Below the pieces are notes generated by a model, which saw nothing but the letters and a program-made list of their open reading frames with translations, did not search any database and was not told the DNA's origin. Positions 22,843 through 45,349 of a DNA stretch of 45,368 nt are shown here, piece after piece (positions within the stretch are counted from its first letter, which is position 1; every line of letters starts with the position of its first letter). This stretch comes from Candidatus Stoquefichus massiliensis AP9 (GTDB lineage Bacteria; Bacillota_I; Bacilli_A; Erysipelotrichales; Coprobacillaceae): the NCBI RefSeq assembly GCF_000455285.1, contig NZ_HG005289.1, positions 207,120 through 252,487 of the forward strand. Direction: 5' to 3'. The position numbers and the translations under genes are program-made.

Positions 22843-24393
22843 TTAGTCTTTTTCACAATTTGCTTCATTCAACTCTATATTATATTTTTTTAAATCTTTG
22901 ATAAAACTAATAGAAATGAGTATTATAACAATAGCAATTGGAAATGCCGCAATAATACTTACAGACTGCAAATTAGTCATTGAGCTATCAGAAAACAGAA
23001 GAGCAATCGGTAAAAGAATAAGTAATATACACCACATAAGTTCAATAATTTTATGTGGCTTTTCACCTTCCCCCAATCTATGATAACTGTAACATGATGC
23101 AATTAAAGCAATAGAATCAAAAGATGTGGCATAAAACGCAATCATTGTAATTAAAAGTAGTATTAATATAAAATTTGAGGCTGGTAATGTCCGAATAATT
23201 GTAATAATAACTTGGTATAAATCTCCTGTTGATTGATACAAGGCAATTAAATCACATCTCCCTGACATTTGTACACCTAAAGAATAATTTCCTAGGATAA
23301 TAAAGCTAATTAATGTTGAGCCGACCCCGAAGACATATCCTCCTAAAATAACTTGTTTGATAGTTCTTCCTTTCGAAATGCTTCCAATAAAGAAAGGCGC
23401 AGCCACGCACCAAACCATCCAATATGCCCAATAGAATATTGTCCAATTTTGAGGAAATGATGTTGATCTTTGCGGATCAGTAAATGTTGCTAATTCAATA
23501 AAATTTTGTATCATTCTTCCTAATGAAGAAAAACCCGTCTCTATAATATATTTTGTTTCTCCACTAAAGAATAATACAAATGCTAAAAGAGTGAAAAACA
23601 AATATATGCAAACTTTAGCAAGAAAACTAATACCTTTTATTCCATGAAGAAGTGCATATGTATAAATAATACATGTAACAATTAAAATAGTAATTGTTAC
23701 AACGGTTCTATCTATATTTATATTAAATAATTCATTGATGATACTTGACATCAATGGTGTTGCTAATGTAAATGTTGTTGCTGTTCCTGCAATTAATGCA
23801 AAAACTGCCAACAAATCAATAAATCGTCCTATAAATCCATTAGTATGATTTCCTAGTAACGGTCGGCATGCTTCTGAAAACTTCTGCCTATTTCTTTTTC
23901 TTACATGTAACATAAATCCAAATGCAACTGCTAATACTAAATAAAATCCCCATGGGATAAGGCTCCAATGAAATAGTGGAAAGACACTAGACCAGTCTTG
24001 GATACTTCCTAGTTCAGCAATATGGGGATCCGTTGCATATAATATCCATTCCGAAAATGAATAGAATAAAATATCAGCGGCTAATCCAGCAGTAAACATC
24101 ATTGCTCCCCACGCAAAAAAAGAATACTTTGGTTTTTCGTCTGGTTTCCCTAGGCGTATATCTCCGAATTTAGAAAAAGTAATAAATATAGATAAGATAA
24201 ATATACCTAAACCTATTATCAAATAATATACACCTAATGTATCTCCTAAAAAAAATCGTATTTGACTTAATACCCTATTTGATTTATTAGGCATATAGAA
24301 GAACAAAATGCAGAGAATAATAATTAGTGATAATGGAAATAGAGTTATCATCCAGTCTATCTGTTTTTTATCCATTTTTTTATGATTTACCAT
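22843..24393 (-). CDS. BCCT family transporter (choline/betaine type)
   Basis: A 516-residue, 12-helix secondary transporter. The BCCT signature is visible in FYWAYWMVWCVAAPFFIGSISKGRTIKQ (about 315-342), with the preceding SGETKYIIETGFSS and the N-terminal KPKYSFFAWGAMMFTAGLAADILFY region. BCCT proteins take up quaternary amines such as choline, carnitine or betaine. It starts four bases after the LicC stop and is the last gene of the choline cassette, so choline is the likely substrate; in streptococcal lic loci this role is filled by the unrelated LicB. SD GGAGG is 11 bases before ATG 24393. Confidence 0.9.
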   Translation of the reverse strand: MVNHKKMDKKQIDWMITLFPLSLIIILCILFFYMPNKSNRVLSQIRFFLGDTLGVYYLIIGLGIFILSIFITFSKFGDIRLGKPDEKPKYSFFAWGAMMFTAGLAADILFYSFSEWILYATDPHIAELGSIQDWSSVFPLFHWSLIPWGFYLVLAVAFGFMLHVRKRNRQKFSEACRPLLGNHTNGFIGRFIDLLAVFALIAGTATTFTLATPLMSSIINELFNINIDRTVVTITILIVTCIIYTYALLHGIKGISFLAKVCIYLFFTLLAFVLFFSGETKYIIETGFSSLGRMIQNFIELATFTDPQRSTSFPQNWTIFYWAYWMVWCVAAPFFIGSISKGRTIKQVILGGYVFGVGSTLISFIILGNYSLGVQMSGRCDLIALYQSTGDLYQVIITIIRTLPASNFILILLLITMIAFYATSFDSIALIASCYSYHRLGEGEKPHKIIELMWCILLILLPIALLFSDSSMTNLQSVSIIAAFPIAIVIILISISFIKDLKKYNIELNEANCEKD

Positions 24394-24397
24394 AATG

Positions 24398-25108
24398 CTA
24401 TTTTCCTCCTATATAACTTGGATCTAAATTAATGAGTTGTTCAAAATCATCTATTTCTATGATATCATTTTCTTCCATTTGCATGATACCTAGCTGATAT
24501 TCATTAAAATAACAAAATAACACTATATCATCCCAATAAATTTTATGATTTTTGTGAATTTCAAATTCTATTTCAAGATGATTCTTCAATTTTTTTGCAT
24601 CATTTTTAGACCATCTAGAAATACTATACAACTGCCATCCATGTTTACCACCAATACGTGAACATCTTTTAATTATATTGTTTTCTAGTTCAAGAAGCCA
24701 CTCATCTGTTTCTCCCTCGCACCAAATACAATTATATCCTGATCTAATAAATTCTTTTTTTAATATATTAGGATTGTATATAATCTGATCCCCATCTAAA
24801 ATAATTGCATCTTCGAGATAATTTCTTGCAACATATAACGATGAGATATTATTACAAGTATCAAAATAAGGATTTTCAATAAATGTAATGTTATCATACT
24901 TATCCAATAGGACTTTAAATTCACTTTTTAAATAACCTACCACGATATATATTTCATATATATCGTTTTCATATAGTGCATCAATTATAGTTTCTATCAT
25001 TCTTTTCCCATTAACATTTATTAATGGTTTAGGCGTAGTCAGACTAACTGGTTGCAATCGTGTTCCTTTACCTGCTGCCAAGATAATTGCTCGTTTTACT
25101 ATATTCAT
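24398..25108 (-). CDS. licC: CTP:phosphocholine cytidylyltransferase (LicC-like)
   Basis: A 236-residue nucleotidyltransferase. RAIILAAGKGTRLQPV with TTPKPLINVNG gives the complete nucleotide loop and catalytic Lys. NNISSLYVARNYLEDAIILDGDQI is close to the LicC pattern around the metal-binding Asp, and YWDDIVLF is typical of the C-terminus. It would make CDP-choline from phosphocholine and CTP. It overlaps the upstream LicA-like fusion gene by four bases (ATGA) and precedes the BCCT gene, so three steps of choline use are coupled. The choline assignment rests mainly on this context. Confidence 0.85.
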   Translation of the reverse strand: MNIVKRAIILAAGKGTRLQPVSLTTPKPLINVNGKRMIETIIDALYENDIYEIYIVVGYLKSEFKVLLDKYDNITFIENPYFDTCNNISSLYVARNYLEDAIILDGDQIIYNPNILKKEFIRSGYNCIWCEGETDEWLLELENNIIKRCSRIGGKHGWQLYSISRWSKNDAKKLKNHLEIEFEIHKNHKIYWDDIVLFCYFNEYQLGIMQMEENDIIEIDDFEQLINLDPSYIGGK

Positions 25109-26865
25109 ATATTACTCCTTTCAATAAATTTCATTGCATAGTAATAATATTCTTTTGCATATCGATACTGTATCAAAGAATATTCTCCGAATTCTACTCC
25201 CAAATGATATTTATACTCACACCAATTACTCCATAATAATCCACATGTAGCAATATAACAATAAATTTTCAAACGTATACTATCGAGACATTGATTTTCA
25301 AAATATATATCAATCAATTGATCAATTTGTTTTTTATCGTACATAGCATATATACAAAACATAGCAATATCAACATGTGCATCTTGCATTGCTGCATATT
25401 CCCAATCAATCAATTTTATTTTTTTCTCATTTTTATCTTGATAGATAAGAAAATTATCTGGAACAGCATCGATATGCGTTAATGTCCACACTTTAGGAGA
25501 ATTATCAATAATCGTTTTTAACTTAAATACATTTTGTTTAGTCTCTTCATAATCTGGATATAGAGAATTACCATTTCTTAATTTTTCATAAAAATCAATT
25601 TTTTTATACAAATTAAAACAATGATCCACTTTTATATTCAAAGAATGAAAATTCTTTAAAAATTTCATACAATTTTTTAAGTCTTCTAAATTTACTGGAT
25701 TACATACTTTTGAATTATTAATATATTTAGTTAATTTATATCCATTATTTTTATCAAAGTAAATGACTTCATCACAAATGTGTAAATGATTAATTTTTTT
25801 GTAGACTTCTCCTTCCTCATAACGATTAATTAATTTATTGGTACCTTCACCAGGAATTCTCATAATATATTTTTGATCATTAGTTTCAAACATAAATGAT
25901 CTATTTGTCATTCCTTTTTTTGATAATGTAATATTTTTAATATCTAAAATATTAATATTTAAACTATTTAGTATAATTTGAATAATATCAGAATAAAGAC
26001 TATTAGAATTTGGATCTAAATCTCTTAAATCCTTAAAAGTATTGATTTCTTTAGATTTACCTTTAATAGTTTTATTATAAATATCTACATTTGAGTTGCC
26101 AATAATAATATCTTCCCAATAATAATGTTTTCTAAGAAAATAAGAATCATTTAATTTGTCAAATTGATTTTTTATTACAATTGAATCTTCATAATTTAAA
26201 TAAGCGATACTTAATGGTTTGTTACTAATATCCTTTTTGTTTTTTATAATTACTTTTTGATTTCTAAGTGACATATATTTTGTAATAACTTTTTGATTAG
26301 CATCAAACAAATACCAAGAGTTTAATTCAATATTATGAAATGGGTTTTCTTGGAACCATATGTCACTAGGTACAATGTATGAATTATGTAAATATTCTCT
26401 TGCCAAATATAAAGAATAGATATTATTTGTTTCCAAATATCTATTATTGACTATAAGATGTATACCATATTTGTCAATAAGGTGTTCATACTGTTCTTTC
26501 ATATATCCTACTACTATATGAATTTCCGTAATACCAACATTGTGGAGCTTTTCAATAATATTTTCTGTAATTGTTTTTCCATATATTTCAACAAATCCTT
26601 TTGGCATATCTTTATTAATTGGTGTCATTCTTAGTCCAATCCCTGCCGCAAGTATAATTGCATTAGTTGGCCTATTTTTATTAATCATTTTTATTGAGAT
26701 ATTAGTAATTTCATTATTATATGATAAATACTTTTTCTCTTTTAAAATTTTAATATTTTTATTAATTGTTCCTAAAGAACAATTTAAATCGCTAGACATT
26801 TCTCTTTGAGTATAATGCGGATATTGATATAGCTTTTTTATTATATTTAAAGCAATTATGTTCAT
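25105..26865 (-). CDS. Winged-HTH / LicC-like nucleotidyltransferase / LicA-like choline kinase fusion
   Basis: A 586-residue, three-part protein from ATG 26865. Residues 1-60 form a winged helix-turn-helix (LYQYPHYTQREMSSDLNC, SLGTINKNIKILKEKKYLS). Residues about 65-290 are a nucleotidyltransferase (AIILAAGIGLRMTPINKDMPKGF) with Leu where LicC has Thr in GxGTR. Residues about 300-586 are a choline kinase-like fold with the Brenner motif LTHIDAVPDNFLI and IKLIDWEYAAMQDAHVDIA. It would phosphorylate choline, and perhaps also carry out or regulate the cytidylyl step. The DNA-binding domain suggests self-regulation. The next gene is a separate LicC. Confidence 0.85.
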   Translation of the reverse strand: MNIIALNIIKKLYQYPHYTQREMSSDLNCSLGTINKNIKILKEKKYLSYNNEITNISIKMINKNRPTNAIILAAGIGLRMTPINKDMPKGFVEIYGKTITENIIEKLHNVGITEIHIVVGYMKEQYEHLIDKYGIHLIVNNRYLETNNIYSLYLAREYLHNSYIVPSDIWFQENPFHNIELNSWYLFDANQKVITKYMSLRNQKVIIKNKKDISNKPLSIAYLNYEDSIVIKNQFDKLNDSYFLRKHYYWEDIIIGNSNVDIYNKTIKGKSKEINTFKDLRDLDPNSNSLYSDIIQIILNSLNINILDIKNITLSKKGMTNRSFMFETNDQKYIMRIPGEGTNKLINRYEEGEVYKKINHLHICDEVIYFDKNNGYKLTKYINNSKVCNPVNLEDLKNCMKFLKNFHSLNIKVDHCFNLYKKIDFYEKLRNGNSLYPDYEETKQNVFKLKTIIDNSPKVWTLTHIDAVPDNFLIYQDKNEKKIKLIDWEYAAMQDAHVDIAMFCIYAMYDKKQIDQLIDIYFENQCLDSIRLKIYCYIATCGLLWSNWCEYKYHLGVEFGEYSLIQYRYAKEYYYYAMKFIERSNI

Positions 26866-26911
26866 TATGATAATACACCTCCATATTAATGAACAACACA
26901 TCACCAAATAA

Positions 26912-30748: not shown

Positions 30749-32186
30749 TTAGTTTCTTTTTAAAATATGTATTCCTTTTTTATAAATATCAAAAATTATT
30801 TCATTTTTTAAAATAAGTTCAATAAATATATATACTATAGCCGATAATAATATGCATAAGAAAGTTTCTAAGATAAAACCGAATTTAAAAAGTTTTATAA
30901 TATTACATAGCAAATATATACCTAAACCTCCAAAAAAAACTGGTTTAATAATTGAATAATTTAAACTTTTTAAATATTCTTTTGATTTAATGAAACATAT
31001 CAAAAAAACAACTATTTCTGCAATCAGAGTGGTTAGAGCAGCTGCGTTTTGTTTATATAAAGGAATCAATAAAAGATTTAATAAAATATTTAAAATCGCA
31101 CTTATAATAGTTGCATATAGAAATATATCCTCTCTTCTATATGGAATAAGTACTCCTGTCCCAAATATACAAGCCAATAGAGCAAATATCAGAGCTATTG
31201 ACAGTATTTGCAAAGGTAAGACAGCTTCTAAATATGCTTCACCAGCAATGATTAGTACAATATTTTCACTTATACAGTATAATCCAATGGCAGCAGGAAA
31301 CAAAATTGTAAAAAGCATATTGAATACTTGATTAAATAATGATTTAAACTTTGCAGTTTCTGTATATGCTGTTAATCTAGGAATTGTTACTGATATAACT
31401 GCCAACATTACCTGTTTCACAATTGTATATATCTTAACAGATGTGCTGTATATACCTACACTATAATCACCAATAATCCAACCTAGAATTGATATATCAG
31501 AATTGACATAAATTGTTGATGCAATGGTTGAACTAAAAATTAATAGAATTGGTTTAATATGCTTTTTTAAAACAATTATTTTAAAATGGAATTTAAACTT
31601 TAAATATTTATTAGCATATACTCCATAAAATATATTTGCTATCCCTGTAGATAATACACTAAAAAAACTAATATATATATATATCCTTAGGGGTTTTGAT
31701 AAACGTCAATAAACAACATACATATATTAATTGTGATATAATTTGAGCAATAGTAATTATACCAAATTCCTCATATATATTATAAATCCAGGACTTACTA
31801 AATGTTGCTAAAAGTATTTGTATACTCAAAATCATAATTAATAAATAATAGTTTGAAAATTTTTCAAAAGAAATTACTATAATAAATAAGGATATGTAAG
31901 CTATTAAAGTAGAAATTATATTAATTGAAATAATTTCATTCGCAAAGTTTGTAAACCTTTCTTTATCCTCACGTATTTTAGCACCTTCGCGAATTGCATA
32001 TGTAGTTATACCTAATTCGGCAAAAATCACAAAATAACTAACTATAGATAATGCAAAATTATATTGTCCTATTGCATTTACTTGTAAAGTTCTCGTAATA
32101 TAAGGAAATGTTATTAAAGGCATAATTAAAGAAAAAATAGTTTTTATAGAAACTAGTAACGCATTTTTTGTTAAAGATTTATTCAT
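30749..32186 (-). pseudogene. wzx: Wzx-type polysaccharide flippase, frameshifted at an (AT)7 tract
   Basis: The N-terminal frame (32186-31668) reads NALLVSIKTIFSLIMPLITFPYITR in pieces typical of the PST/MATE-like O-unit flippases, then stops after TPKDIYIY. The frame continues two bases out of phase with ISFFSVLSTGIANIFYG and runs open to 30749. The two meet at an (AT)7 tract (31671-31684); eight or five AT units would restore about 479 residues, the normal length with 12-14 helices. The locus has no other flippase in this window. It may be reversible slippage, a fixed mutation or an assembly error. The gene overlaps the GT2 stop by eight bases. Confidence 0.85.
31671..31684 (-). repeat. 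(AT)7 dinucleotide tract inside wzx
   Basis: Seven uninterrupted AT units within the coding sequence, exactly where the reading frame of wzx is lost. The tract is a natural site for slipped-strand mispairing. Confidence 0.85.
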
Positions 32187-33162
32187 TCAAAATTCTCCTT
32201 TGCAAAAAGGATTTCAAAGTTAAATATACATTTGTTAAAATCAAAAAACCTTTAATTTTTTCAGTATAATTCAAATATGGAGATAGAACAAATAATATAA
32301 AATTACTTTTTAAATTGTTATAATAACATATATAATCATCAATATACTTTTTCTTTGTCTCTTTATCTTCTAAAATCAAATAGAGCATATAAAGTGAATA
32401 TTTTGCTTTAAAACACTTATACTCTTTTTTTAAGTTAGGATAATATTTTTCAATTATATTTTCTATTTGATTAAGATGCTCAATTATAATATGCTTTTTT
32501 GGGGAATATCCTGACCTAGTAATACTTTCACCGTTTTTACAATAATAATATAAAGGTTTAGATACATGCACAATTCTACTACATTTTTTAAATATTAAAG
32601 GTAATATTACAATATCCTCATTAATTTCACCTTCCGGGAATTTTATTTCATCAAACAAACTCCTTTTATATAATTTATCCCAAGCTGGTTCCCCTATATA
32701 TGTTCCTCTTAACATCTCTTGCATTGCTTTAGTAGATGAAATAGTTTTTTCCTTTGGTAGGGTGAATTCTTCTTCTATTTTTCCATTATCATAAAGGACG
32801 TAACGTCCACAGCAAGCCAAATCTGAATCAAACTTATAAATAGCATTAATCATTGTTTCAATCATAGTTTTATCAATAAAATCATCGCTATCTACAAAGC
32901 AAAGAAATTCTCCATGGCTTACATAGATTCCTGCATTTCTGGCGCTAGACAACCCACCATTAGTTTTATGTAAAACAACTACTCTATCATCTTTTTCTTT
33001 CCAAAACTCACACATGGATGAGCAATTATCTGGTGATCCATCATCTACTAGGATAATTTCTATGTTTTGATATGATTGATTTACTATGCTATTAATGCAT
33101 CTATCAAGATACATTTCTACATTGTATATTGGTACAATAACTGAGACTAATGGATTGTTCAT
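32179..33162 (-). CDS. Glycosyltransferase family 2
   Basis: A 327-residue enzyme from ATG 33162 (MNNPLVSVIVPIYNVE; SD AAAGGAG). The GT-A fold shows YLDRCINSIVNQSYQNIEII, LVDDGSPDN and the metal-binding FVDSDDFID, with GGLSSARNAGI between. It transfers a sugar from an NDP-sugar to the growing repeat unit at the membrane. The start lies 13 bases inside the upstream GT2 gene and its end overlaps wzx, so translation is tightly coupled. The donor sugar cannot be assigned. Confidence 0.9.
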   Translation of the reverse strand: MNNPLVSVIVPIYNVEMYLDRCINSIVNQSYQNIEIILVDDGSPDNCSSMCEFWKEKDDRVVVLHKTNGGLSSARNAGIYVSHGEFLCFVDSDDFIDKTMIETMINAIYKFDSDLACCGRYVLYDNGKIEEEFTLPKEKTISSTKAMQEMLRGTYIGEPAWDKLYKRSLFDEIKFPEGEINEDIVILPLIFKKCSRIVHVSKPLYYYCKNGESITRSGYSPKKHIIIEHLNQIENIIEKYYPNLKKEYKCFKAKYSLYMLYLILEDKETKKKYIDDYICYYNNLKSNFILFVLSPYLNYTEKIKGFLILTNVYLTLKSFLQRRILNE

Positions 33163-33173
33163 TTTTTTCTCCT

Positions 33174-34199
33174 TTAAGATTTTATTTTCAATAAAACGTA
33201 GCATACTAAAGTCATTTTCTTTTCAATAAAATAATATAAAACCTTTCTTTGAAATGGTGAAGATAATTTACATATTTTGATTGCCTTAAGTAACGTTTCA
33301 TTTTTTATCTCTTTTTTTAAGATATCAAACTTTTTATTAAATTTGTAATGAGATGCAACAATTTGTTTTAATGCTGCTATACAGTTTCCCAAATATAAAT
33401 TATTAAAACTATTCATTACATCACTATTATAATTTAATTCAGCTAGTGCTTTTTGAGTACACTGATAAAAAAAAGTATTTTTTTCTAATCGATCTTCACG
33501 GAATACATGAGTTAAAGAATTGTTGTTATAATAATAGTAATAAAAAGCCTGAGGAATAGTTACCACTTTTTCTACATGTTTATATAAATATATTAATGAA
33601 TAAAAGTCTTCTGAAATAATTTCACGCTCTGATACTAATCTCCAATTAGCTCGTTTGATAAGATTAATACTAAACATTGAAGCACACATACTCATACAAT
33701 ATCCATAGTCTTTACCATCAATAGGATCTACATTCATCAGTCTTGGTAAAAATATTTTTTCAATTTCATTTTTTTCAAAAATTTTATACTGAAGTGGTTT
33801 AGTGATTTTGGTAATCTTGTTATTAGGACCTATATAATTAATCCCAAAATTAACTATGTCTGCTGATGTTTCACAAATTGCTTCTAAACAGCATTTTATA
33901 GTATTAATATCGACTCGATCATCTGCGTCACAAAAACATAGATACTCCCCAGATGCATTTTCGATGCCGGTGTTTCTAGCATAGCCAAGTCCTTGATTTT
34001 TTTTGTGTATAACTTTAATCCTTGTATCTTTAGTAGCCCATTTATCACATATTAATGAACTCATATCTGTAGAACCATCATCAATTAATAAAATTTCTAT
34101 ATTTCTATAAGTTTGCTTTATTATACTTAATATGCATCTATCAAGAAACTTCTCGGCATTATACACTGGAACTATAATTGTAACTAAGATCTCATCCAT
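33174..34199 (-). CDS. Glycosyltransferase family 2
   Basis: A 341-residue GT-A enzyme: VTIIVPVYNAEKFLDRCI, LLIDDGSTDMSSL, NQGLGYARNTGIENASG and the DxD-type FCDADDRVD. It is a paralogue of the next gene in the operon and would add another residue to the repeat unit. ATG 34199 has SD AAAGGGGAA. It lies 13 bp after the wzy stop. Confidence 0.9.
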   Translation of the reverse strand: MDEILVTIIVPVYNAEKFLDRCILSIIKQTYRNIEILLIDDGSTDMSSLICDKWATKDTRIKVIHKKNQGLGYARNTGIENASGEYLCFCDADDRVDINTIKCCLEAICETSADIVNFGINYIGPNNKITKITKPLQYKIFEKNEIEKIFLPRLMNVDPIDGKDYGYCMSMCASMFSINLIKRANWRLVSEREIISEDFYSLIYLYKHVEKVVTIPQAFYYYYYNNNSLTHVFREDRLEKNTFFYQCTQKALAELNYNSDVMNSFNNLYLGNCIAALKQIVASHYKFNKKFDILKKEIKNETLLKAIKICKLSSPFQRKVLYYFIEKKMTLVCYVLLKIKS

Positions 34200-34212: not shown

Positions 34213-35457
34213 CTAGATATTGGTCAAATTATCCATTTGTCCAAATAAAATAAATAATAGTAAGCTTGTAGGATTAAAAAAACTAGATTCAGCAATTGAG
34301 GTGATTAATAAATATAATATAATACTTCCCATTGCCAATGAAATAACCTTGCTTTTCTTATATTTTTTTAATATACAATTTATAAAATAAATTATAACCA
34401 AACAAAATATAGCAGTTCCAAATATCCCAGTTTGAGCAAAAATAGCAGGCCAAAAACTATCATTTAGAAAATATGATTCTAAAGCACTCATTCCGAAATT
34501 ATTATCATAGTTTAATTTAACATATAGAGGTGAATAAAACTGTTCTGCAATAGTTGTACCAAAGGTCCCAAATCCTGTACCAAGAGGAAAATGTTTAATC
34601 ATTAAATCGAAACTATCATTTAATAAAATTGATCTTGGTGAATATCTAGTTGGACTAAAAAAATAATTTATAATTGTATCTTTTGTAAGAAATAACATTG
34701 ATATTATTCCACCAATTCCAATTGGAATGAAATTAATTTCTTTTTTCATTATAAAAAGAAAAATATAAAACATCCAATATACAAATATGAAAGCAATTGC
34801 CTTAGACCTAAATGTTGTAAATATTATAAAACTGCAACAAATCAAATAAAAAATATTTTTATGATTATAGTTTGAATACGAGAGAATTGCTATTAAAGTT
34901 ACCATTGCCACCGCAAGGTACGTAGGATGTCCAAACATCAACTGTAAACTCTCCATAAAATATCTATATTCATTTTTTGGATAAATTGGATGAAAAAATA
35001 TGTCATGGATAATTAGCAATGTAAAAATTATAACTAATAATTTTGAGATTGGTGTAATAACTTGAATAAAGTCAAAATTAGTTTTTCTCGTATAAACAGA
35101 AGCTGCTAAATAAGCAATTATAAATTTACTAACTATTAAACCAGCATCAATTAATGCAGGAAAAAACAATTGATAGTTATATATAAGATTTGATATAAGA
35201 CCAAAAGATAAAAATAACATCCATAATATTAATAGCATTTTATAATTTTTAATGAGAAATAGTGTATTTTTCAAAAGATATAGTACAAAAAATACAGTTA
35301 ATATTTCATCAATATAATTTAAATATTGATAATCAGATAAACATTTAATAAAAAAAAGTATTAAAAATAAAAGATTTGAAACTACCACTTTTTTATCAAG
35401 ATTTAAATTTTTAATTAATGATGTTAGTTTATTTAATATATTGTCACAGTATTTCAT
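34213..35457 (-). CDS. wzy: Wzy-type polysaccharide polymerase
   Basis: A 414-residue membrane protein with about 10-12 hydrophobic segments and the O-antigen ligase/polymerase pattern. A large extracellular loop between late helices contains PTRYSPRSILLNDSFDLM and FPLGTGFGTFGTT, the usual Wzy loop near a G(T/F)G motif. It polymerises lipid-linked repeat units outside the membrane. Wzy sequences diverge fast, so the call rests on topology and on its position beside GTs and Wzx. The start overlaps the GT32 stop by 14 bases. Confidence 0.8.
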   Translation of the reverse strand: MKYCDNILNKLTSLIKNLNLDKKVVVSNLLFLILFFIKCLSDYQYLNYIDEILTVFFVLYLLKNTLFLIKNYKMLLILWMLFLSFGLISNLIYNYQLFFPALIDAGLIVSKFIIAYLAASVYTRKTNFDFIQVITPISKLLVIIFTLLIIHDIFFHPIYPKNEYRYFMESLQLMFGHPTYLAVAMVTLIAILSYSNYNHKNIFYLICCSFIIFTTFRSKAIAFIFVYWMFYIFLFIMKKEINFIPIGIGGIISMLFLTKDTIINYFFSPTRYSPRSILLNDSFDLMIKHFPLGTGFGTFGTTIAEQFYSPLYVKLNYDNNFGMSALESYFLNDSFWPAIFAQTGIFGTAIFCLVIIYFINCILKKYKKSKVISLAMGSIILYLLITSIAESSFFNPTSLLLFILFGQMDNLTNI

Positions 35458-36388
35458 TGAAATATGTTCCTTTCTTATAAAACTGCTCTACAGAAAATTT
35501 ATAACTTAATTTGTGAAAATCTGTTAATTGTTTTGTGGCATTCCATATATTTTCATCATAATCATCAAACAATCTTAATAATAAAATATGAGGTATAGAA
35601 TTCGGAAAAGGTATGACTCTTTGCCATTCTTGAGGATAAGTCTCTATAGCTAATTCAAAAAAATCATGGATAAGAAAATAATCTATTAAAATATTGTTAT
35701 ATCTCCAATATTCATATATCAGTTCTCTTGTTAATAGTATAATTGGATGATTAGTACATGATGTCATAAACCAACTTGATATGCGAGTAGAATGTCCATC
35801 TAACCCTGGTTTTAGATTTTGATAAACAAACAAATCCGAATCAAAGATATAGGAAGGATAATTGCTTCCAGAACAAAAAACTGTTGCATCAATCCAAGTA
35901 CCGCCATATTTAGCTAATAATTCTAATCTAAGAAGATCAGAGAAATGAGTTTTTGTTATTATGTTGTCATCTACCTTTCTCTGAATGAAGTCAGGAAAGT
36001 TAATATAATCTCTATAATTATTTTCTGTAATCAATATAATTTCTTTGTTTAATAAATTTTTTTGCAATGAATCATAACATTTTTGTACTAAAATAGGTGC
36101 ATTTTCCAGGCCTTGCAACCAACATACCCATATTTTATTTGTTTTTATTCTTTCTAGATTATCCATACAATGTTCTGATTTGTATTTTTTAATAAAATCT
36201 AAATTTCTTTTTCTTAGTTTTTTTTGAATCTTGTTATTAACAGAAAGTCTCACAATTTCTAGTGATTTTGCTGAAAAACCGTTCAATATAGTTTGAAAAA
36301 TAGCAAATATTAATACATGAGCCTTGGCATACTGTTTCAATATATTAATGCCATCAACTTTCTTAAATAAAATAATGAATTTTTTCAA
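35444..36388 (-). CDS. Capsular polysaccharide synthesis protein, GT32-like
   Basis: A 314-residue protein. The central region KIWVCWLQGLENAPILVQKCYDS (in two parts) leads to HFSDLLRLELLAKYGGTWIDATVFCSG, which contains the DxD-type motif and YGG of GT32/Caps_synth enzymes. It would transfer a sugar in repeat-unit assembly. I start at TTG 36388 because GAGGTG is six bases upstream; the frame extends to a TTG at 36406 that lacks a site. It lies 45 bp downstream of licD. Confidence 0.85.
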   Translation of the reverse strand: MKKFIILFKKVDGINILKQYAKAHVLIFAIFQTILNGFSAKSLEIVRLSVNNKIQKKLRKRNLDFIKKYKSEHCMDNLERIKTNKIWVCWLQGLENAPILVQKCYDSLQKNLLNKEIILITENNYRDYINFPDFIQRKVDDNIITKTHFSDLLRLELLAKYGGTWIDATVFCSGSNYPSYIFDSDLFVYQNLKPGLDGHSTRISSWFMTSCTNHPIILLTRELIYEYWRYNNILIDYFLIHDFFELAIETYPQEWQRVIPFPNSIPHILLLRLFDDYDENIWNATKQLTDFHKLSYKFSVEQFYKKGTYFNEIL

Positions 36389-36433
36389 AAAAACACCTCT
36401 TTTCAAAATTATAATATATTCTAAGTTAAATAC

Positions 36434-37261
36434 TTAATCTTCTTTCAAGTAAGTTTTATAGAAATGATGACCAATTCTTTCTTCTTTTGGTGGTAACTTC
36501 ATATAATTGCCATACATCGATGTTAATATTCGGTCATACTCTTTAGGTATGTAAAAATTATATTTTTCAAATTTGTGTAGTATTGATTCATCAAAATCAC
36601 TTTTCAAATAAATATCCTTTTTAAATCCAGATAACCACACCCCACAGCCAATATATTTTGATTCAGCATATTTATATTTTTGTGAAAGATACAATAATTT
36701 ATTTCTAAAATATTGTTTTCCAAAAATTTTAGAAACTAAATATAAAATAACCTCAATAATATTTCTAAACAATTTGTATCTTTTATTTATCATCGGTTTT
36801 ATTCTAGTAGAGCGAAACATAAGTGATGAGTAATGATCAATTTTTCTTGCATGACGAATTACATCCTTATAATCATTTCCTAAACCATCCATTGGATATA
36901 TATCAATAAATACACCCATTCCACAATCTACTTCATTATCAGTTTCAATTTTGTATCTATTATCGCTTACCCTAGCAATCATATAAGGATACTTATCATT
37001 ATATCGAGGCTCAAAAATTTCTAAAAACGAAAATTTTTTTGAATATTTAGGAAAACATGATAAAAATTTTTCATAATTTTCTCTATCCATTGCAATATCT
37101 AAGTCATCATCCCAAGGGATAAAACCATTATGTCTAATTGCCCCAATTAAAGTTCCATACATTAAAAAATACTTAATATCTTCTATTTCACAAATTTCAT
37201 GTACAAATTTCATAACTTCTAAGGCCCCACTTTGAACATAGCTATTAGATATTTCTTTCAT
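36434..37261 (-). CDS. licD: LicD family phosphocholine transferase
   Basis: A 275-residue protein with the LicD hallmark YGTLIGAIRHNGFIPWDDDLDIAM (about residues 40-62), where the DDDLD cluster binds metal, and later DIYPMDGLGND. LicD enzymes transfer phosphocholine from CDP-choline to sugars of teichoic acid or capsule. Other family members move other phospho-groups, but the LicA-like, LicC and BCCT genes 10 kb downstream make phosphocholine the best guess. The start lies within the end of the WchF-like gene (17-base overlap). GAGGAA precedes ATG 37261. Confidence 0.88.
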   Translation of the reverse strand: MKEISNSYVQSGALEVMKFVHEICEIEDIKYFLMYGTLIGAIRHNGFIPWDDDLDIAMDRENYEKFLSCFPKYSKKFSFLEIFEPRYNDKYPYMIARVSDNRYKIETDNEVDCGMGVFIDIYPMDGLGNDYKDVIRHARKIDHYSSLMFRSTRIKPMINKRYKLFRNIIEVILYLVSKIFGKQYFRNKLLYLSQKYKYAESKYIGCGVWLSGFKKDIYLKSDFDESILHKFEKYNFYIPKEYDRILTSMYGNYMKLPPKEERIGHHFYKTYLKED

Positions 37262-38408
37262 TTATTATTTCCTCATACTTTCCTACAATCAAATCCCAGC
37301 TATAATGCTCATTAATCCTTTTCTTTGCATTATTGGATAATTCAGCTAAGTCTTTTTCTTTAATTAATTCTAAATTATTGATAAGTCTTGCCAGATTCAT
37401 ATCCTCTTTATTCCAATAGACAGCACCATCTTCTCCAACTTCTTCATTAAATCCAACATCTAATAATAAATTTAAGTCTGTTGTTGCTAGAGCTTCCAGT
37501 AATGATGGATTGGTCCCTCCAACCTCATGTCCATGAAGATATCCATAGGCATTCTCTCTAATTTTCTTTAACAACTGTTGATTATAGACTGTTCCTACAA
37601 ATTTAATTCTTAAATCCTTATCAAAATGTGTTTGTTTCTTCAATTCTTCATAGAATTTGTTTTCTTCAACATTTGTAATTAATACAAAGTCTTTCTTTGT
37701 ATCAGATTTCATAAACTCTTTAATCATTGTTTCATAGTTATTTTCTGGTACAAATCTACCAACTACTAGATAATATTCTTTTGGTTTAACATCTTCATCT
37801 TTATACCATTTAAGAAGCTTTTCATCATCGTCTTGTAAAGTCGACTTTGTCGTATCAGCTCCATAAGCAATAAAAGTTGTCTTTGGTTGATATTGTTTAT
37901 AATTTTCCTGGATATATACTTCTATGTTCTCAGAATCACAGATTAATAAATCAGCATGTTTAACCATGAGTTTTTCTGATAATTTCCAATATTTTCTGAT
38001 TAAATAGTTCCATTTTGCTCTTTTCCATTCGTGACCATCAGGATTGACAAAAACTTTGCAATTCAAAGCATGTAATTGCTTAACATATTTACCTACAAAT
38101 GGACCAATTCGACATGCAAGAATATATACAATAGCGTATTCTAAATTATTTTTTTTAATATAATCTACACAATATTTTAATGCAGAAATATCATAATAAA
38201 CTGCCTTAGCTGGTCCTATATTGGGAACATTAACATTAAAGCAATGAGCAGTTTTATACTGAAATTCTTTAGTATCATTGGATAGACAAGAAACATGATA
38301 TTTTATGTTCTCATCTTTTTGTCTTGAAACTAGTTCATCTACAAAAGTTTCAAAGCCTCCATAGTTAGCTGGAATACCTTTTGATCCTATAATAAATACA
38401 TTTTTCAT
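37245..38408 (-). CDS. Rhamnosyltransferase, GT4 with DUF1972 (Cps2T/WchF-like)
   Basis: A 387-residue GT-B enzyme. The N-terminal DUF1972 domain starts NVFIIGSKGIPANYGGFETFVDEL, the pattern of beta-1,4-rhamnosyltransferases Cps2T/WchF. The C-terminal GT4 part has YYLVVGRFVPENNYE and the acceptor/donor loop GYLHGHEVGGTNPSLLEALA. It probably adds L-rhamnose as second sugar, fed by the dTDP-rhamnose genes just upstream. It follows the initiating transferase by 41 bp. Confidence 0.9.
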   Translation of the reverse strand: MKNVFIIGSKGIPANYGGFETFVDELVSRQKDENIKYHVSCLSNDTKEFQYKTAHCFNVNVPNIGPAKAVYYDISALKYCVDYIKKNNLEYAIVYILACRIGPFVGKYVKQLHALNCKVFVNPDGHEWKRAKWNYLIRKYWKLSEKLMVKHADLLICDSENIEVYIQENYKQYQPKTTFIAYGADTTKSTLQDDDEKLLKWYKDEDVKPKEYYLVVGRFVPENNYETMIKEFMKSDTKKDFVLITNVEENKFYEELKKQTHFDKDLRIKFVGTVYNQQLLKKIRENAYGYLHGHEVGGTNPSLLEALATTDLNLLLDVGFNEEVGEDGAVYWNKEDMNLARLINNLELIKEKDLAELSNNAKKRINEHYSWDLIVGKYEEIINERNI

Positions 38409-38449: not shown

Positions 38450-39799
38450 TTATAAAGCGCCTTTTCCATAAATTACACTTTTTACTGTTTTATAAATAAT
38501 AACTAAATCCAAACCCAAAGACCAATTTCGATAATAATAATCGTCTAATTGGCATCTATCTTTAAAACCAATATCATTTCTTCCATTTGCTTGCCACATT
38601 CCTGTGATACCCGGTTTACAAGCAATTACAGATTCATAATAAATATCCATATCTATTTTTTCTCTAGGTAAATAAGGCCGTGGTCCTACCAAACTCATTT
38701 CACCTTTAATAACATTTATGAATTGAGGAAATTCATCTAATGAACTTTTTCTGAGAAAATGTCCTACTTCTGTAATACGTGGATCATTTATTAATTTCTT
38801 ATTTTCCAAATATTCTCTCTTGATTTCAGGATCTTTCTCCATTAATTCTTCTAAAACTTTTTCAGCATTTGGAATCATAGACCTATATTTATAAATGTAT
38901 ATAGGTTTTCCATCTTTACCAATTCTTTCTTGTTTAAAGAAAATAGGCTCTGTATCTCCATTTTTCTTGTTTTTATGAGAAACAAATAAAGTTAATGGAA
39001 TCAAAAGAACACATCCAACAATTCCCGCACAAATATCAATGATTCTCTTAATAATTCTCTCTATAAATCCTAATTTACCTCGAGATGTAGATATAAGTAA
39101 TTCACCATCATAATCATTAACTTTAGAATTAAATGTCATTGTAAAATTAAGTTCTGGCAAAATCTTTACTATGTTAACTTTGCCAAATATTCGTTTTGAA
39201 ACATTGTCAATCTGGTCTTTAGTTGCATTTGGAATCGCGATAATTACTTGATCAATCTTTTCTTGAATCAATATTTCTTCTAACTCACTAGACTCATAAA
39301 TATTAAACTTTTCATTTTTTCTTAATTCATCAGCATATACTTCATCATACATTTTCACAAATCCAGTGACATCTGTCAAGGCAAAGCGATTATTATGTGA
39401 AATAGTTCCTATTCTATATGCATGATTGCCCGTTCCAATAACAAGTGTTTTTCTTGCTAACCACTTCCTTAACATAATTCTTAATAATCTATTGACAAAT
39501 ACAGAAACAAAGAACTGAAAAAAGCCTACACATATGATTATTGGAAAATAATTCCAATTTGGGTATATAAATACAAGAGACAATGCACAAAAATATATAA
39601 ATGCTTTTGCATCACTCCTAATTTCATCCCATACCAATGTAGACTCAATTTTGTAATGTTTAAAAATAAATATAACAATAAACCAAATGGCGCCTATTTG
39701 CCATAATATCCCATCATTTAAATGAAAAACACTGCTAAATAAATAGAAAAAGAATGTCTCTATAATGAATAATAGAACTGCATAAAAATTCTCTTTCAT
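38450..39799 (-). CDS. Initiating sugar-phosphate transferase (WbaP/CpsE-like)
   Basis: A 449-residue polyprenyl-phosphate glycosyl-1-phosphate transferase. N-terminal helices (1-125) are followed by a CoA-binding-like region (KTLVIGTGNHAYRIG) and a hydrophobic re-entrant segment (DICAGIVGCVLLIPLTLFV). The catalytic domain carries FKQERIGKDGKPIYIYKYRSM, SLDEFPQFINVIKGEMSLVG (in overlapping pieces) and the end LGLDLVIIYKTVKSVIYGKGA. It links the first sugar phosphate to undecaprenyl phosphate. It opens the second transcription unit of the locus, with its own promoters. Confidence 0.93.
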   Translation of the reverse strand: MKENFYAVLLFIIETFFFYLFSSVFHLNDGILWQIGAIWFIVIFIFKHYKIESTLVWDEIRSDAKAFIYFCALSLVFIYPNWNYFPIIICVGFFQFFVSVFVNRLLRIMLRKWLARKTLVIGTGNHAYRIGTISHNNRFALTDVTGFVKMYDEVYADELRKNEKFNIYESSELEEILIQEKIDQVIIAIPNATKDQIDNVSKRIFGKVNIVKILPELNFTMTFNSKVNDYDGELLISTSRGKLGFIERIIKRIIDICAGIVGCVLLIPLTLFVSHKNKKNGDTEPIFFKQERIGKDGKPIYIYKYRSMIPNAEKVLEELMEKDPEIKREYLENKKLINDPRITEVGHFLRKSSLDEFPQFINVIKGEMSLVGPRPYLPREKIDMDIYYESVIACKPGITGMWQANGRNDIGFKDRCQLDDYYYRNWSLGLDLVIIYKTVKSVIYGKGAL

Positions 39800-40086: not shown

Positions 40087-40929
40087 CTATTCTTCAATTA
40101 TCTTCAAGTATCGATTTAAAGCATCTTGCCATGTAGGTAATCTGTTAAATCCATGTCTATCTAATTCACCTTTATTCATACGACTATTAGATGGTCTTTT
40201 TGCTTTAGCAGGAAAAGCATTTGAATCAACCGGTGTCACTTTGACATCTATATCTGCTTGCTTAAAGATTTCACATGCAAATTCATACCATGAACATATT
40301 CCTTCATTTGTTGCATGGTATGTTCCATATTCTTGTGTTTGTATCATATCTACACATAACTTTGCTAAATCATATGTATAAGTTGGTGATCCAATCTGAT
40401 CATCAACCACTGAAACTGCTCCTCTTTCTTTTCCTAATCGTAACATTGTTTTAATAAAGTTATTACCATTCAATCCAAATACCCATGAAATACGAATAAT
40501 AAAATGTTTAGGTAACTTTTCAACAATGAGTTCACCTTCATATTTTGTTTGACCATAAACATTTAATGGTTCTCTATAATCGTATTCATTCCATGGTTCT
40601 TCTCCTAATCCATTAAAAACATAATCAGTAGAAAAATACATCATTGGTATATCTAACTCTTTACAAACATTTGCAATATTCTCAGTTCCATCTCTATTCA
40701 CCTTTCTGCATAACTCTACTTCATCTTCTGCCTTATCTACAGCGGTCCATGCAGCACAATGAATAACTGCATCAGCATTAGTGTTATGAATCACTTCATC
40801 AACTTGTTTTGCATTAGTAATATCCATTTCATCAATATCCACACCAATTGCCTCTATATTTCTTTTTTGACATTCATTAACTATATCATAGCCTAATTGA
40901 CCTTTTACACCTGTCACCAATATTTTCAT
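40087..40929 (-). CDS. rmlD: dTDP-4-dehydrorhamnose reductase
   Basis: A 280-residue short-chain dehydrogenase-type reductase. MKILVTGVKGQLGYDI is the NAD(P) glycine motif, STDYVFNG carries the catalytic Thr region, and YGQTKYEGE gives the YxxxK pair. It makes the last step to dTDP-L-rhamnose. Length is normal. It is the last gene of the rml operon, 16 bp after the GH25 gene, and is followed by a terminator. Confidence 0.94.
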   Translation of the reverse strand: MKILVTGVKGQLGYDIVNECQKRNIEAIGVDIDEMDITNAKQVDEVIHNTNADAVIHCAAWTAVDKAEDEVELCRKVNRDGTENIANVCKELDIPMMYFSTDYVFNGLGEEPWNEYDYREPLNVYGQTKYEGELIVEKLPKHFIIRISWVFGLNGNNFIKTMLRLGKERGAVSVVDDQIGSPTYTYDLAKLCVDMIQTQEYGTYHATNEGICSWYEFACEIFKQADIDVKVTPVDSNAFPAKAKRPSNSRMNKGELDRHGFNRLPTWQDALNRYLKIIEE

Positions 40930-40945
40930 TTTATGTTCACCTACC

Positions 40946-42733
40946 TTATATTGGATATGCTCCTTTATTAACTATTTGTATTTGAATTGCTTCTGCTCTT
41001 AGTGACTGACCAATAGTCCCAGAAACCTCTCCATTTTTTGACCAATTTAGCCAGCCTTTATTTTGAATATGGAGTCTGTAGTATATATCATAATAATTTG
41101 AAATTTCTCCTGTAAGTTTTATCTTAATTGCTTCAAGCCGAAGAGCATTACCACTTGTTCCGTTCACTGAATTATTACTAGACCAATTTAACCAGCCATC
41201 ATTTTGTACATGTGTTATATAGGAAATATTCCCTGACATACCTGTTTTCTGCAATAAAGATTCTATATCTATTTTTATGTTTTCCATCCTCAATGCTTTA
41301 CCAACAGTTCCACTAATTGCTCCTTCAGATACATAGGGAGTGTCCCCATATGTTTGTACATGAGAAGAATATTTCAATTTTGATCCACCATAAAAAGACG
41401 TCTTTATAGTTTTTCCAGGTGCCTCATCTCCTTTTTTCACCATTTCAATTTGGATAGCTTCAGCACGAAGTTTCTTTCCCACAGAACCAGAGATAGCACC
41501 ATTTTTTGACCACTCTAGCCAACCCTCATTTTGAATATGTAAGCGATAATAAATATCATATTTATTTGATATATCTCCATCAAGCTTAATTTTTATGCCC
41601 TCAATCTGTAATGCTTTTCCTGTAGTTCCGCTTATTTGTCCATCCTGTTTCCATGCAGTCCATCCAATATCTTGAATGTGTGTACTGTACTTTATACTTC
41701 CATTAATATTTTTATTTTCAATATTAATTTTTAGTCCTTCTAATCTTAAGGATTCCCCAGTAATTCCAGCAACTTCTTTTTTATTTACTGAATCTAGCCA
41801 CCCATATTTTTCAGAATGTGCAGTATATGAAAGTCTTGCCTCACTATTAAATGCACTAATATCAACACGCCCATTAATGCCTGACACATTTCCACTTGAA
41901 GTATATTGCCATCCATATAAGTCGTTAGTATAATCATGATTTACATATCCTAATGTTTTAGTATAAGCAGCCACCCAAGATACATACTTTAAAATTTTAG
42001 GACTATTTAATACTCCCTGTAAATAGCTTCTATAGCTATAGACATCAGCAGTGTATCCATGATTCTTCATTGTATCCATAAAAGATGATACAATTTGTTC
42101 ATAAACTTTTGTGGACTTAGGAGCTGTTAATTTTACTCCATTCTCTTTATAAGACCAATTTTCTAAATCATAATATATTGGATATGTGTTTTTTACATTT
42201 AACTTTTTTATAAGTGAAGCAAAGAAATCAGCTTCTTTTTTTGCTTCATCTGCATTAGCAGCATAACTATAAAGATATACTCCATATGGGATGTTTAATC
42301 TATTTAATGCATCAATATTATTTTTAGCTTGCTCATCAATTTGATCACTATACCAACCATATCCTAATCTTACAATAACTCCATCAATTTCCTTAGAATT
42401 CTTTACTTTTTGCCAATCAATTTTACCATTATGCTTTGATATATCAATAATTTTTTTTGAATTACTTATACCAAATAAATTATCATTTGCATCATAAAAA
42501 TTTCTTCCTTTCCAATACGGAGAAGAACTTGTTCTAAACATACTTACTTGATTAAACAATCTAGATTTTTCATCAGTTCCATTAATCCAATCATCATATT
42601 TTTGTTGTTCTGCATTTGCTATTCCTTCATGTTGTTCTTGATTAACTATATCATCCGCCAACACATTTTTAACTGGATTAACAAGAAGGATTATAAAACT
42701 AATGATAACAGATGCTATTAAATATTTTTTCAT
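40946..42733 (-). CDS. Secreted GH25 muramidase with six ChW repeats
   Basis: A 595-residue exported protein from ATG 42733 (MKKYLIASVIISF), with a signal peptide cut near VLA-DD. Residues about 95-290 are a glycoside hydrolase 25 domain: IIDISKHNGKIDWQKV, IVRLGYGWYSD, and YPIYYDLENWS with the catalytic acid pair. The rest is six clostridial hydrophobic (ChW) repeats of about 47 residues, with the GWLxWSxNGxxSGTxG pattern in most; the fourth has Gly-Asp-Thr where the Trp should be. It would cut peptidoglycan while the repeats bind the surface. It lies, unexpectedly, between rmlB and rmlD. Confidence 0.92.
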   Translation of the reverse strand: MKKYLIASVIISFIILLVNPVKNVLADDIVNQEQHEGIANAEQQKYDDWINGTDEKSRLFNQVSMFRTSSSPYWKGRNFYDANDNLFGISNSKKIIDISKHNGKIDWQKVKNSKEIDGVIVRLGYGWYSDQIDEQAKNNIDALNRLNIPYGVYLYSYAANADEAKKEADFFASLIKKLNVKNTYPIYYDLENWSYKENGVKLTAPKSTKVYEQIVSSFMDTMKNHGYTADVYSYRSYLQGVLNSPKILKYVSWVAAYTKTLGYVNHDYTNDLYGWQYTSSGNVSGINGRVDISAFNSEARLSYTAHSEKYGWLDSVNKKEVAGITGESLRLEGLKINIENKNINGSIKYSTHIQDIGWTAWKQDGQISGTTGKALQIEGIKIKLDGDISNKYDIYYRLHIQNEGWLEWSKNGAISGSVGKKLRAEAIQIEMVKKGDEAPGKTIKTSFYGGSKLKYSSHVQTYGDTPYVSEGAISGTVGKALRMENIKIDIESLLQKTGMSGNISYITHVQNDGWLNWSSNNSVNGTSGNALRLEAIKIKLTGEISNYYDIYYRLHIQNKGWLNWSKNGEVSGTIGQSLRAEAIQIQIVNKGAYPI

Positions 42734-42800
42734 TATATTCATTTCCCCTTTTAGAAACATCTCAAAGACAAAAAGTTATTATGAAAATAACTTTTTGAAA

Positions 42801-43829
42801 TTATACTCTTCCTTTTTCTTTATACATTTTATCAAAGTAATTCTGATATTCACCCGAAAGAATGTTTTGCCACCATTCTTTATTATCTAAATACCATTGA
42901 ATTGTTTGTTGTATACCTGTATCAAAGTTATATTTTGGTTTCCATCCTAATTCTGTTTCTAACTTGTGAGGATCAATAGCATATCTTCTATCATGACCTT
43001 TACGATCTTCTACAAATTTAATTAATGATTCTGGTTTATCTAATGCCTTTAAGATAGTTTGTACAACTTCTAAGTTTGTACGTTCATTATGTCCGCCAAC
43101 ATTATAAACTTCACCAACTTTACCATTTCTGACAATCAAGTCTATAGCTACACAATGATCATAAACATGTAACCAATCTCTTACATTATCACCTTTTCCA
43201 TATACAGGTAATGATTCATCAGCTAATGCTCTTGAAATCATTAAAGGAATTAATTTTTCAGGGAAATGATATGGTCCATAATTATTAGAACATCTACTAA
43301 TTGTTACTGGTAACCCATAAGTTCTATGATAAGCTAAGACAAATAAATCTGCTGAAGCTTTAGATGAACTATATGGACTAGATGTATGTAATGGTGTTTC
43401 TTCTGTAAAGAATAAATCTGGTCTATCTAATGGTAAATCACCATAAACTTCGTCAGTAGATACTTGATGATATCTTGTAATGCCATATTTATTACATGCA
43501 TCTAACAAAGTTGTTGTTCCCATGACGTTTGTTCTGACAAAACTTTCAGGATCTTCAATACTTCTATCTACATGTGATTCTGCTGCAAAATTCACAACAA
43601 CATCAAATTTTTCTTTTTCAAACAAATCAAAAATAAACTTTCTATCAGCAATATCACCTTTTACAAATTTATAATTTGGTTTCCCTTCTACTGGTTTACA
43701 TGTTTCTAAATTTCCAGCATAAGTTAATAAATCTAAATTTACAATCATATCATCTGGATACTTCTCTACCATATAATGAACAAAGTTACCACCAATAAAC
43801 CCTGCTCCACCTGTCACTAATATCTTCAT
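42801..43829 (-). CDS. rmlB: dTDP-glucose 4,6-dehydratase
   Basis: A 342-residue extended short-chain dehydrogenase. KILVTGGAGFIGGNFVHY binds NAD, STDEVYGDL carries the catalytic Thr-Asp-Glu, and SPYSSSKASADLFV contains YxxxK. It turns dTDP-glucose into the 4-keto-6-deoxy intermediate. It starts four bases after rmlC, in the same operon. Confidence 0.95.
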   Translation of the reverse strand: MKILVTGGAGFIGGNFVHYMVEKYPDDMIVNLDLLTYAGNLETCKPVEGKPNYKFVKGDIADRKFIFDLFEKEKFDVVVNFAAESHVDRSIEDPESFVRTNVMGTTTLLDACNKYGITRYHQVSTDEVYGDLPLDRPDLFFTEETPLHTSSPYSSSKASADLFVLAYHRTYGLPVTISRCSNNYGPYHFPEKLIPLMISRALADESLPVYGKGDNVRDWLHVYDHCVAIDLIVRNGKVGEVYNVGGHNERTNLEVVQTILKALDKPESLIKFVEDRKGHDRRYAIDPHKLETELGWKPKYNFDTGIQQTIQWYLDNKEWWQNILSGEYQNYFDKMYKEKGRV

Positions 43830-43833
43830 TTAT

Positions 43834-44406
43834 CTATTCTCCTTCATATACAAATTGATTATCTGATTCTTCTAAGGTTGGTCCTGTTTTATCTTTTTCA
43901 CTTAGAACAGGCTCTATTCCATTTAATAATCCTCCCCAGTCTACATTCACAGTAGGATCGTCATAACGCATACCACCTTCAGATTCTTTGTTATAAACAT
44001 TATCAACTTTATATCTAAATTCTACATCATCAGTCAATGTTAAGAACCCATGAGCAAACCCTTGAGGAATAAAGAATTGTCTATGATTTTCTGCACTTAA
44101 TTCTACAGAAACCCAATCACCATATGTAGGACTACCTTTTCTGATATCCACTGCTACATCAATCACTTTCCCTTTTGTACAAGAGACAAGTTTAGATTGC
44201 GCATATGGGGGATTTTGCCAATGCAAACCTCTCAATGTTCCTTTTTGTGCACTAAACGACATATTGTCTTGTACAAAATCAACAGTTACACCTATTTTTT
44301 CATATTTAGGTTTAGAATATGTTTCACAGAAATATCCTCTATGATCTCCATTCACATCAATATCAATAATCAATACACCTGGTATCTTTGTTTCAGTTAC
44401 TTTCAT
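43834..44406 (-). CDS. rmlC: dTDP-4-dehydrorhamnose 3,5-epimerase
   Basis: A 190-residue cupin-fold epimerase. GDHRGYFCETYS, NMSFSAQKGTLRGLHWQ with the catalytic His, CTKGKVIDVAVDIRKGSPTYG and FFIPQGFAHGFLTL are all present. It epimerises the RmlB product before reduction by RmlD. I use ATG 44406; a TTG at 44415 has better spacing to GGGAAG and overlaps the rmlA stop, so a nine-base longer product is possible. Confidence 0.94.
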   Translation of the reverse strand: MKVTETKIPGVLIIDIDVNGDHRGYFCETYSKPKYEKIGVTVDFVQDNMSFSAQKGTLRGLHWQNPPYAQSKLVSCTKGKVIDVAVDIRKGSPTYGDWVSVELSAENHRQFFIPQGFAHGFLTLTDDVEFRYKVDNVYNKESEGGMRYDDPTVNVDWGGLLNGIEPVLSEKDKTGPTLEESDNQFVYEGE

Positions 44407-44407
44407 A

Positions 44408-45286: not shown

Positions 45287-45325
45287 ATTAATGTCCTCCA
45301 AATATTTTCTATATTTAAATAATAA

Positions 45326-45349
45326 ACCATGACGTAACGTCATGGTCAA
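45326..45349 (-). promoter_or_regulatory. Palindrome overlapping the likely rmlA promoter
   Basis: ACCATGACGT-A-ACGTCATGGT (45326-45346) is a 10-bp perfect inverted repeat. On the minus strand TTGACC (45344-45349) overlaps one end and T/A-rich -10-like sequence (TTTATTATTT) follows. It could be an operator on the rmlA promoter or the terminator hairpin of a gene outside the window. Confidence 0.5.

What the first reader, a model, noticed from the sequence alone, without database searches (positions are those of the whole stretch)
31668..31690. wzx flippase switched off by a dinucleotide (AT)7 tract
The two halves of the flippase are both free of stops over their whole length and meet exactly at seven AT units; a gain of one unit restores a 479-residue Wzx. 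Recent loss or reversible slippage explains this better than old decay. A flippase switch would turn the whole polysaccharide on or off.
Basis: partly seen in the sequence, partly recalled or inferred. Interest (0 to 1): 0.75.

Follow-up and report, generated by a model that had tools for sequence, protein, structure and literature searches.

The report
Broken sugar flippase at AT repeat
In this assembly the gene for the membrane protein that flips sugar building blocks of a surface polysaccharide is cut in two by a reading-frame break at the genome's only seven-unit AT repeat; the break looks real and recent, but relatives suggest an ordinary small mutation at least as much as a built-in on/off switch.

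Summary
On the minus strand a Wzx/MOP flippase is split into a 172-residue N-half (32186-31671) and a stop-free C-half (31705-30752). The two frames overlap for 35 bases, and (AT)7 at 31671-31684 lies inside that overlap. It is the only (AT)7 in the 3.51 Mb genome. All 24 other full-length flippases found in family and class genomes have a single open frame.

(AT)7 is at chance level genome-wide (0.85 expected, 1 observed), and the tract simply encodes a conserved D-x-x-I-Y motif where transmembrane helix 6 begins. Homologues carry no such tract. The spacing across the junction has no gap in 27 homologues, nor in TacF of known structure. A whole-AT-unit change gives one residue too many or too few; a net one-base difference gives the family spacing. 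So AT slippage and an ordinary one-base indel are both live, with a slight lean to the indel. No reads or second strain exist here to show switching.

The rest of the operon is intact, so loss of Wzx should be costly unless another flippase covers for it or the locus is silent. Better slippage candidates in this genome are poly-G tracts (G10-G11) in other glycan operons.

The parts
31671..31684 (.). (AT)7 tract; on the minus strand it encodes most of the D-I-Y-I-Y stretch where helix 6 of the flippase begins
   Evidence: only (AT)7 in the genome
31671..31705 (-). zone where the two reading frames overlap (35 bases); the frame break lies somewhere in it
   Evidence: stop positions
31668..32186 (-). 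wzx N-terminal part, ATG start, 172 aa, ends at TAG
   Evidence: PF01943 E=3.5e-21
30749..31705 (-). wzx C-terminal part, stop-free frame of 318 codons; first ATG/GTG/TTG only at 31420
   Evidence: PF13440 E=5.4e-13 and PF01943 E=1.8e-7
32179..33204 (-). family 2 glycosyltransferase, intact
33174..34199 (-). family 2 glycosyltransferase, intact
34213..35457 (-). Wzy-like polymerase (Wzy_C, just under cut-off), intact
35444..36406 (-). Caps_synth glycosyltransferase, intact
36434..37261 (-). LicD-family phosphocholine transferase, intact
37245..38408 (-). Cps2T-like rhamnosyltransferase, intact
   Evidence: NF046071 667.9 bits over a 500-bit cut-off
38450..39799 (-). initiating sugar-phosphate transferase (Bac_transf), intact
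40087..45349 (-). rmlD, GH25/ChW lysozyme-like protein, rmlB, rmlC, rmlA: dTDP-rhamnose supply with a cell-wall hydrolase in the middle
22843..26907 (-). choline block: kinase/nucleotidyltransferase fusion (25105-26907), nucleotidyltransferase (24398-25108), BCCT transporter (22843-24393)

Best explanation
This is a recently frame-broken (loss-of-function) allele of a TacF/Wzx-like MOP flippase in an otherwise intact, rhamnose- and probably phosphocholine-containing polysaccharide locus. Translation stops 172 residues in, before helix 6, and the rest has no proper start, so no working flippase is expected from this gene. The (AT)7 tract is there because the conserved D-x-x-I-Y motif was spelled with alternating ATA/TAT codons in an AT-rich genome. 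It probably made the spot mutable, but it does not behave like a tuned switch. The mutation was either a one-base indel in the 35-base overlap (slight lean) or loss of an AT unit from a lineage-specific form one residue longer. Shown: broken frame, intact neighbours, undecayed halves, spacing of relatives. Inferred: loss of function, recency, kind of mutation.
For: Frames and tract. Flippase identity: (TacF structure 9XZN, E=9.7e-21). 24 other full-length flippases in family and class genomes, one of them the paralogue in this genome, all have one open frame. The two halves, aligned separately onto 27 homologues, fit without a gap only if the join is shifted by one base relative to a whole-AT-unit join; none of the 27 has a gap in the roughly 50 columns around the junction. 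TacF fits the same spacing (my reading of the alignment). No homologue examined has alternating A/T longer than 6 bases there. Chance-level (AT)n; other (AT)6 sites lie in intact genes, such as truA, spelling D-I-Y-I (motif placement by reading). The nearest relative (45% identity, L005) is also frame-broken, at a different place without a long repeat. Both halves keep family-like scores.
Against: The sole (AT)7 of the genome coinciding with the only clear frame break seen in 45 kb is unlikely unless the tract took part, which favours unit slippage. A one-residue insertion is possible in this lineage: the window protein has another private one about 35 residues downstream. The intact initiating transferase and glycosyltransferases without a visible suppressor argue against long-standing loss (flippase loss is lethal in pneumococcus, PMC8561386).
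Confidence: 0.58

Rival explanations
1. Reversible slippage switch: the AT tract gains and loses units, so that some cells make a full flippase (one residue longer than the family spacing) and others do not. The assembly caught the OFF state.
For: The only (AT)7 in the genome sits in the frame-overlap zone. A whole-unit change can restore an open frame of 479 codons. Dinucleotide tracts of 7-13 units separate pneumococcal serotypes 15B and 15C and switch in nature (PMC7101100). Intact upstream genes suggest the loss is recent or transient.
Against: No read or strain data. No whole-unit change gives the spacing that 27 homologues share. No homologue has a tract there. Tract frequency is at chance level. 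MutS is intact, so repair that damps slippage is probably present. Where this genome does carry unusually long repeats in glycan operons, they are poly-G.
Confidence: 0.27
2. Sequencing or assembly error: the real gene is intact.
For: One small length error would be enough. The assembly is a 24-contig draft of unknown method. L005, another draft, also has a frame-broken copy.
Against: Nearly all other ORFs in 45 kb, and those in about 50 kb elsewhere that I read, are intact full-length frames, so the assembly is not generally error-prone. A 14-base tract is short for any read type.
Confidence: 0.1
3. The gene still works as it is: programmed frameshifting or transcriptional slippage at the tract, or two separately made halves that assemble.
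For: Both halves are free of stops.
Against: The N-half stop comes before the downstream T7 run, so slippage there cannot help. The break falls inside the N-terminal six-helix bundle, after about five helices, not between domains. No start codon lies near the head of the C-half. Relatives are single-frame genes.
Confidence: 0.05

Closest known systems
Streptococcus pneumoniae wciZ (TA)n, serotypes 15B/15C
   Same: Dinucleotide A/T tract of 7-8 units inside a capsule gene, with a two-base frame effect (PMC7101100, PMC5207522, PMC3541774)
   Different: There the tract controls an O-acetyltransferase (side modification), switching is documented and strains carry 7-13 units. Here it is a flippase, no variation is shown, and no unit number gives the family spacing.
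Acinetobacter baumannii wzx poly-T slippage under phage selection
   Same: Frame break of wzx at a short repeat, switching off a surface polysaccharide (PMC10249906)
   Different: Homopolymer, selected by phage in the laboratory, observed directly.
Pneumococcal TacF (9XZN) and Cps2J flippases
   Same: MOP-family flippases of Gram-positive surface polymers; TacF is the only solved relative found and also serves a choline polymer
   Different: Loss of either is lethal in pneumococcus (PMC13385700, PMC8561386); here the gene is broken in a genome that was evidently sequenced from living cells.
Campylobacter-type poly-G contingency loci
   Same: Tract-length frame switching in surface-glycan genes; similar poly-G tracts exist elsewhere in this genome
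   Different: The wzx tract is AT, not poly-G, and is not longer than chance predicts.

Membership tests
Wzx/MOP polysaccharide flippase | Polysacc_synt profile over the protein | tested here: met
   Both halves hit PF01943 back to back; TacF hit E=9.7e-21
Wzx/MOP polysaccharide flippase | Single open frame of about 480 codons | tested here: not met
   Split into 172 and 318 codons; relatives intact. So: a broken allele of the family
Wzx/Wzy-dependent polysaccharide locus | Initiating transferase, glycosyltransferases, Wzy-like polymerase and Wzx in one operon | tested here: met
   the Wzy_C hit is just under its cut-off (30.7 against 31.7 bits)
Simple-sequence-repeat phase-variable gene | Tract in or next to the coding frame whose unit change alters the frame | tested here: met
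Simple-sequence-repeat phase-variable gene | Tract longer than chance | tested here: not met
   0.85 expected against 1 observed genome-wide
Simple-sequence-repeat phase-variable gene | Some tract length gives the normal family protein | tested here: not met
   Whole-unit changes miss the conserved spacing by one residue; function of such a form is unknown
Simple-sequence-repeat phase-variable gene | Length variation among cells or strains | not testable with these tools
   No reads; one genome for the species; the only congener held (G001) has no match at E<=1e-20
Simple-sequence-repeat phase-variable gene | Tract conserved in orthologues | tested here: not met
   Longest A/T alternation at the site in the homologues examined is 6 bases

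The most novel reading that the evidence does not exclude
A reversible AT-repeat switch on the flippase itself, rather than on a decorating enzyme, turns a rhamnose/phosphocholine surface polymer on and off in a Gram-positive bacterium that also uses poly-G tracts in other glycan operons. This would need a way to survive lipid-carrier trapping in the OFF state.
Probability: 0.22. Interest if true: 0.5.

Novelty: new member of a known kind. Interest (0 to 1): 0.25.

Why it matters
If it switches, it would put the choke point of polymer export under random control and raise the question of how the OFF cells avoid trapping undecaprenyl phosphate. If it is a plain mutation, as seems at least as likely, it is one more frame-broken capsule gene. 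The spacing test used here (does any whole-unit length give the family spacing?) is a simple way to separate tuned switches from chance tracts.

Tried and rejected
Looked for other strains: the genus holds one other genome and it has no match at E<=1e-20; one genome-contig scan gave three distant relatives; the flanked-tract pattern found nothing in viral contigs; plasmids gave only about 69% identity over a short piece. Looked for a tract in homologues: none. Looked for an RNA element near the break: none; promoter-like matches are at shuffle level. Searched the 1 kb gap downstream of wzx for a recognisable gene: none. Looked for inverted repeats of an invertible switch in the locus: only AT-rich chance-like pairs. 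Rejected slippage at the nearby T7 run as a rescue, because the stop codon precedes it.

Full report
Check of the observation. The window is contig C6:207120-252487 of a 3.51 Mb, 24-contig, 99.4% complete genome. On the minus strand an ATG-started frame runs from 32186 to 31671 (172 codons) and stops at TAG 31670-31668; a second frame is stop-free from 31705 to 30752 (318 codons). The frames overlap by 35 bases, 31671-31705. The (AT)7 tract, 31671-31684, lies at the downstream end of that overlap and is the longest dinucleotide run of the window. Pfam's Polysacc_synt model is covered back to back by the two halves, 1-168 and 167-271.

Chance. In the whole genome (AT)6 or longer occurs at three sites, and only this one reaches seven units. 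With the window's base-step frequencies 0.85 (AT)7 and 7.7 (AT)6 matches are expected per genome, so the tract is not unusually long for this genome. The other two sites lie within intact ORFs, one of them truA, where D-I-Y-I gives the alternating codons (placement of the motif by reading). The sister-species genome also has three (AT)6 sites. What is unlikely by chance is that the single (AT)7 falls in the 35-base zone of a frame break (my estimate: about 4e-5 per given zone). The tract therefore probably took part in the break as a mutable spot; that is inference.

What the gene is. It is a MOP-superfamily flippase; the only solved relative found is pneumococcal TacF, 9XZN (E=9.7e-21). It sits at the end of an operon with rmlA, rmlC, rmlB, rmlD, an initiating sugar-phosphate transferase, a Cps2T-like rhamnosyltransferase, LicD, a Caps_synth transferase, a Wzy-like polymerase and two family 2 glycosyltransferases, all intact, followed by a choline block (kinase/nucleotidyltransferase, BCCT transporter). 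The polymer is therefore probably rhamnose-containing and phosphocholine-decorated (inference from families). A paralogue in the same genome (C2:211099-212499, 38-39% identity) is intact and sits with its own Wzy-like and glycosyltransferase genes.

Spacing test. 24 other flippases found over full length in family and class genomes (including the paralogue) are all single open frames. The two halves were aligned separately onto 27 homologues (those in family and class genomes plus L005 and L006). None of the 27 has a gap in the roughly 50 columns around the junction. The N-half ends on the tyrosine of a conserved D-[YIFLV]-x-x-Y motif where helix 6 begins; the C-half continues in register with the family only if the join is shifted by one base from a whole-AT-unit join. 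TacF has the same spacing (my reading of the alignment). A whole-unit change can open the frame, but it leaves the protein one residue longer or shorter than every relative. Homologues have at most six alternating A/T bases at the site. So the tract codes for a conserved motif and is not a conserved repeat.

Weighing the two origins. For AT slippage: the coincidence with the tract, and the known high rate of unit slippage (general knowledge). Against: the ancestor would have needed a one-residue insertion at a spot where none of 27 relatives has an indel. For a one-base indel: it gives the family spacing directly. Against: such an indel would fall beside the tract in only a few percent of cases. 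My estimate is close to even, with a slight lean to the indel. The nearest relative, L005 (45% identity, a MAG), is itself frame-broken at another place without a long repeat, so plain frame breaks occur in this family or in such drafts.

Recency and cost. Both halves keep scores like those of intact relatives (window joined 453.9 bits; leave-one-out scores of full-length relatives 384-609), so decay is not advanced. In pneumococcus loss of the capsule flippase is lethal unless the initiating transferase is shut off (PMC8561386), and loss of Wzx traps undecaprenyl phosphate in many bacteria (PMC12826051). Here the initiating transferase is intact, so the locus may be silent, another flippase may cover (some pneumococcal flippases accept foreign cargo, PMC11759038), or the loss may be very recent or transient. 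None of this could be tested.

Closest known case. Pneumococcal wciZ carries 8 TA units in serotype 15B and 7-13 in 15C, and the switch is seen in nature (PMC7101100). A. baumannii wzx is switched off by poly-T slippage under phage attack (PMC10249906). Mechanistically the finding resembles these; membership among tuned switches fails on tract length, family spacing and conservation, and strain variation is untestable here.

Beyond the finding. The genome carries G10, G10 and G11 tracts in glycan operons: next to the start of a FlaA1/CapD-like gene (C6:288679), at the end of an acetyltransferase gene (C6:283752), and at the end of an RmlD-like gene followed by another SDR gene (C5:64106). In such a low-GC genome (the window is about 28% GC) these are far longer than chance (my estimate), and 21 of 43 family genomes have at least one G9 or longer. 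These are better candidates for real slippage switches than the AT tract.

Left out. I have not spelled out which base or bases would restore the frame, nor proposed restoring the gene, because the species and its relation to disease are unknown.

Noticed in passing
L076 (G000:C6:278000-296000), tract at C6:288679-288688, minus strand: G10 between an upstream ATG with a purine-rich leader and the first in-frame ATG of a FlaA1/CapD-like NDP-sugar dehydratase; tract length sets the frame of the leader, a good candidate for a real slippage switch.
   Followed up: partly
L076, C6:283752-283761; L077, C5:64106-64116: G10 at the end of an acetyltransferase gene and G11 at the end of an RmlD-like gene, both in glycan operons with another sugar-modifying gene just downstream.
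   Followed up: partly
window 12031-12038: C8 (G8 on the coding strand) in the ribosome-binding region of a small secreted protein (GTG start at about 12020, end 11590), beside two LytTR/AgrC-like regulatory genes; length changes could alter translation.
   Followed up: partly
family genomes (43): 21 of 43 held genomes of this bacterial family have at least one poly-G run of nine or more; slippage tracts may be common in this Gram-positive family.
   Followed up: partly
L005:10001-11435: The nearest flippase relative (rabbit-gut MAG, going by its name) is also frame-broken, near residue 356, without a long repeat; it may be an error of the MAG.
   Followed up: partly
window 29737-30748: About 1 kb downstream of wzx with no ORF over about 65 codons, no Pfam, Rfam or DNA match; perhaps a decayed gene.
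   Followed up: partly
window 21079-21906: Tyrosine recombinase between the choline transporter and the LytR-CpsA-Psr genes; no clear inverted repeats of an invertible switch were found nearby.
   Followed up: partly
window 27318-27560: Truncated IS200-like Y1 transposase remnant inside the locus.
   Followed up: no
window 40946-42760: GH25 lysozyme with six ChW repeats encoded between rmlB and rmlD, inside the polysaccharide operon.
   Followed up: no
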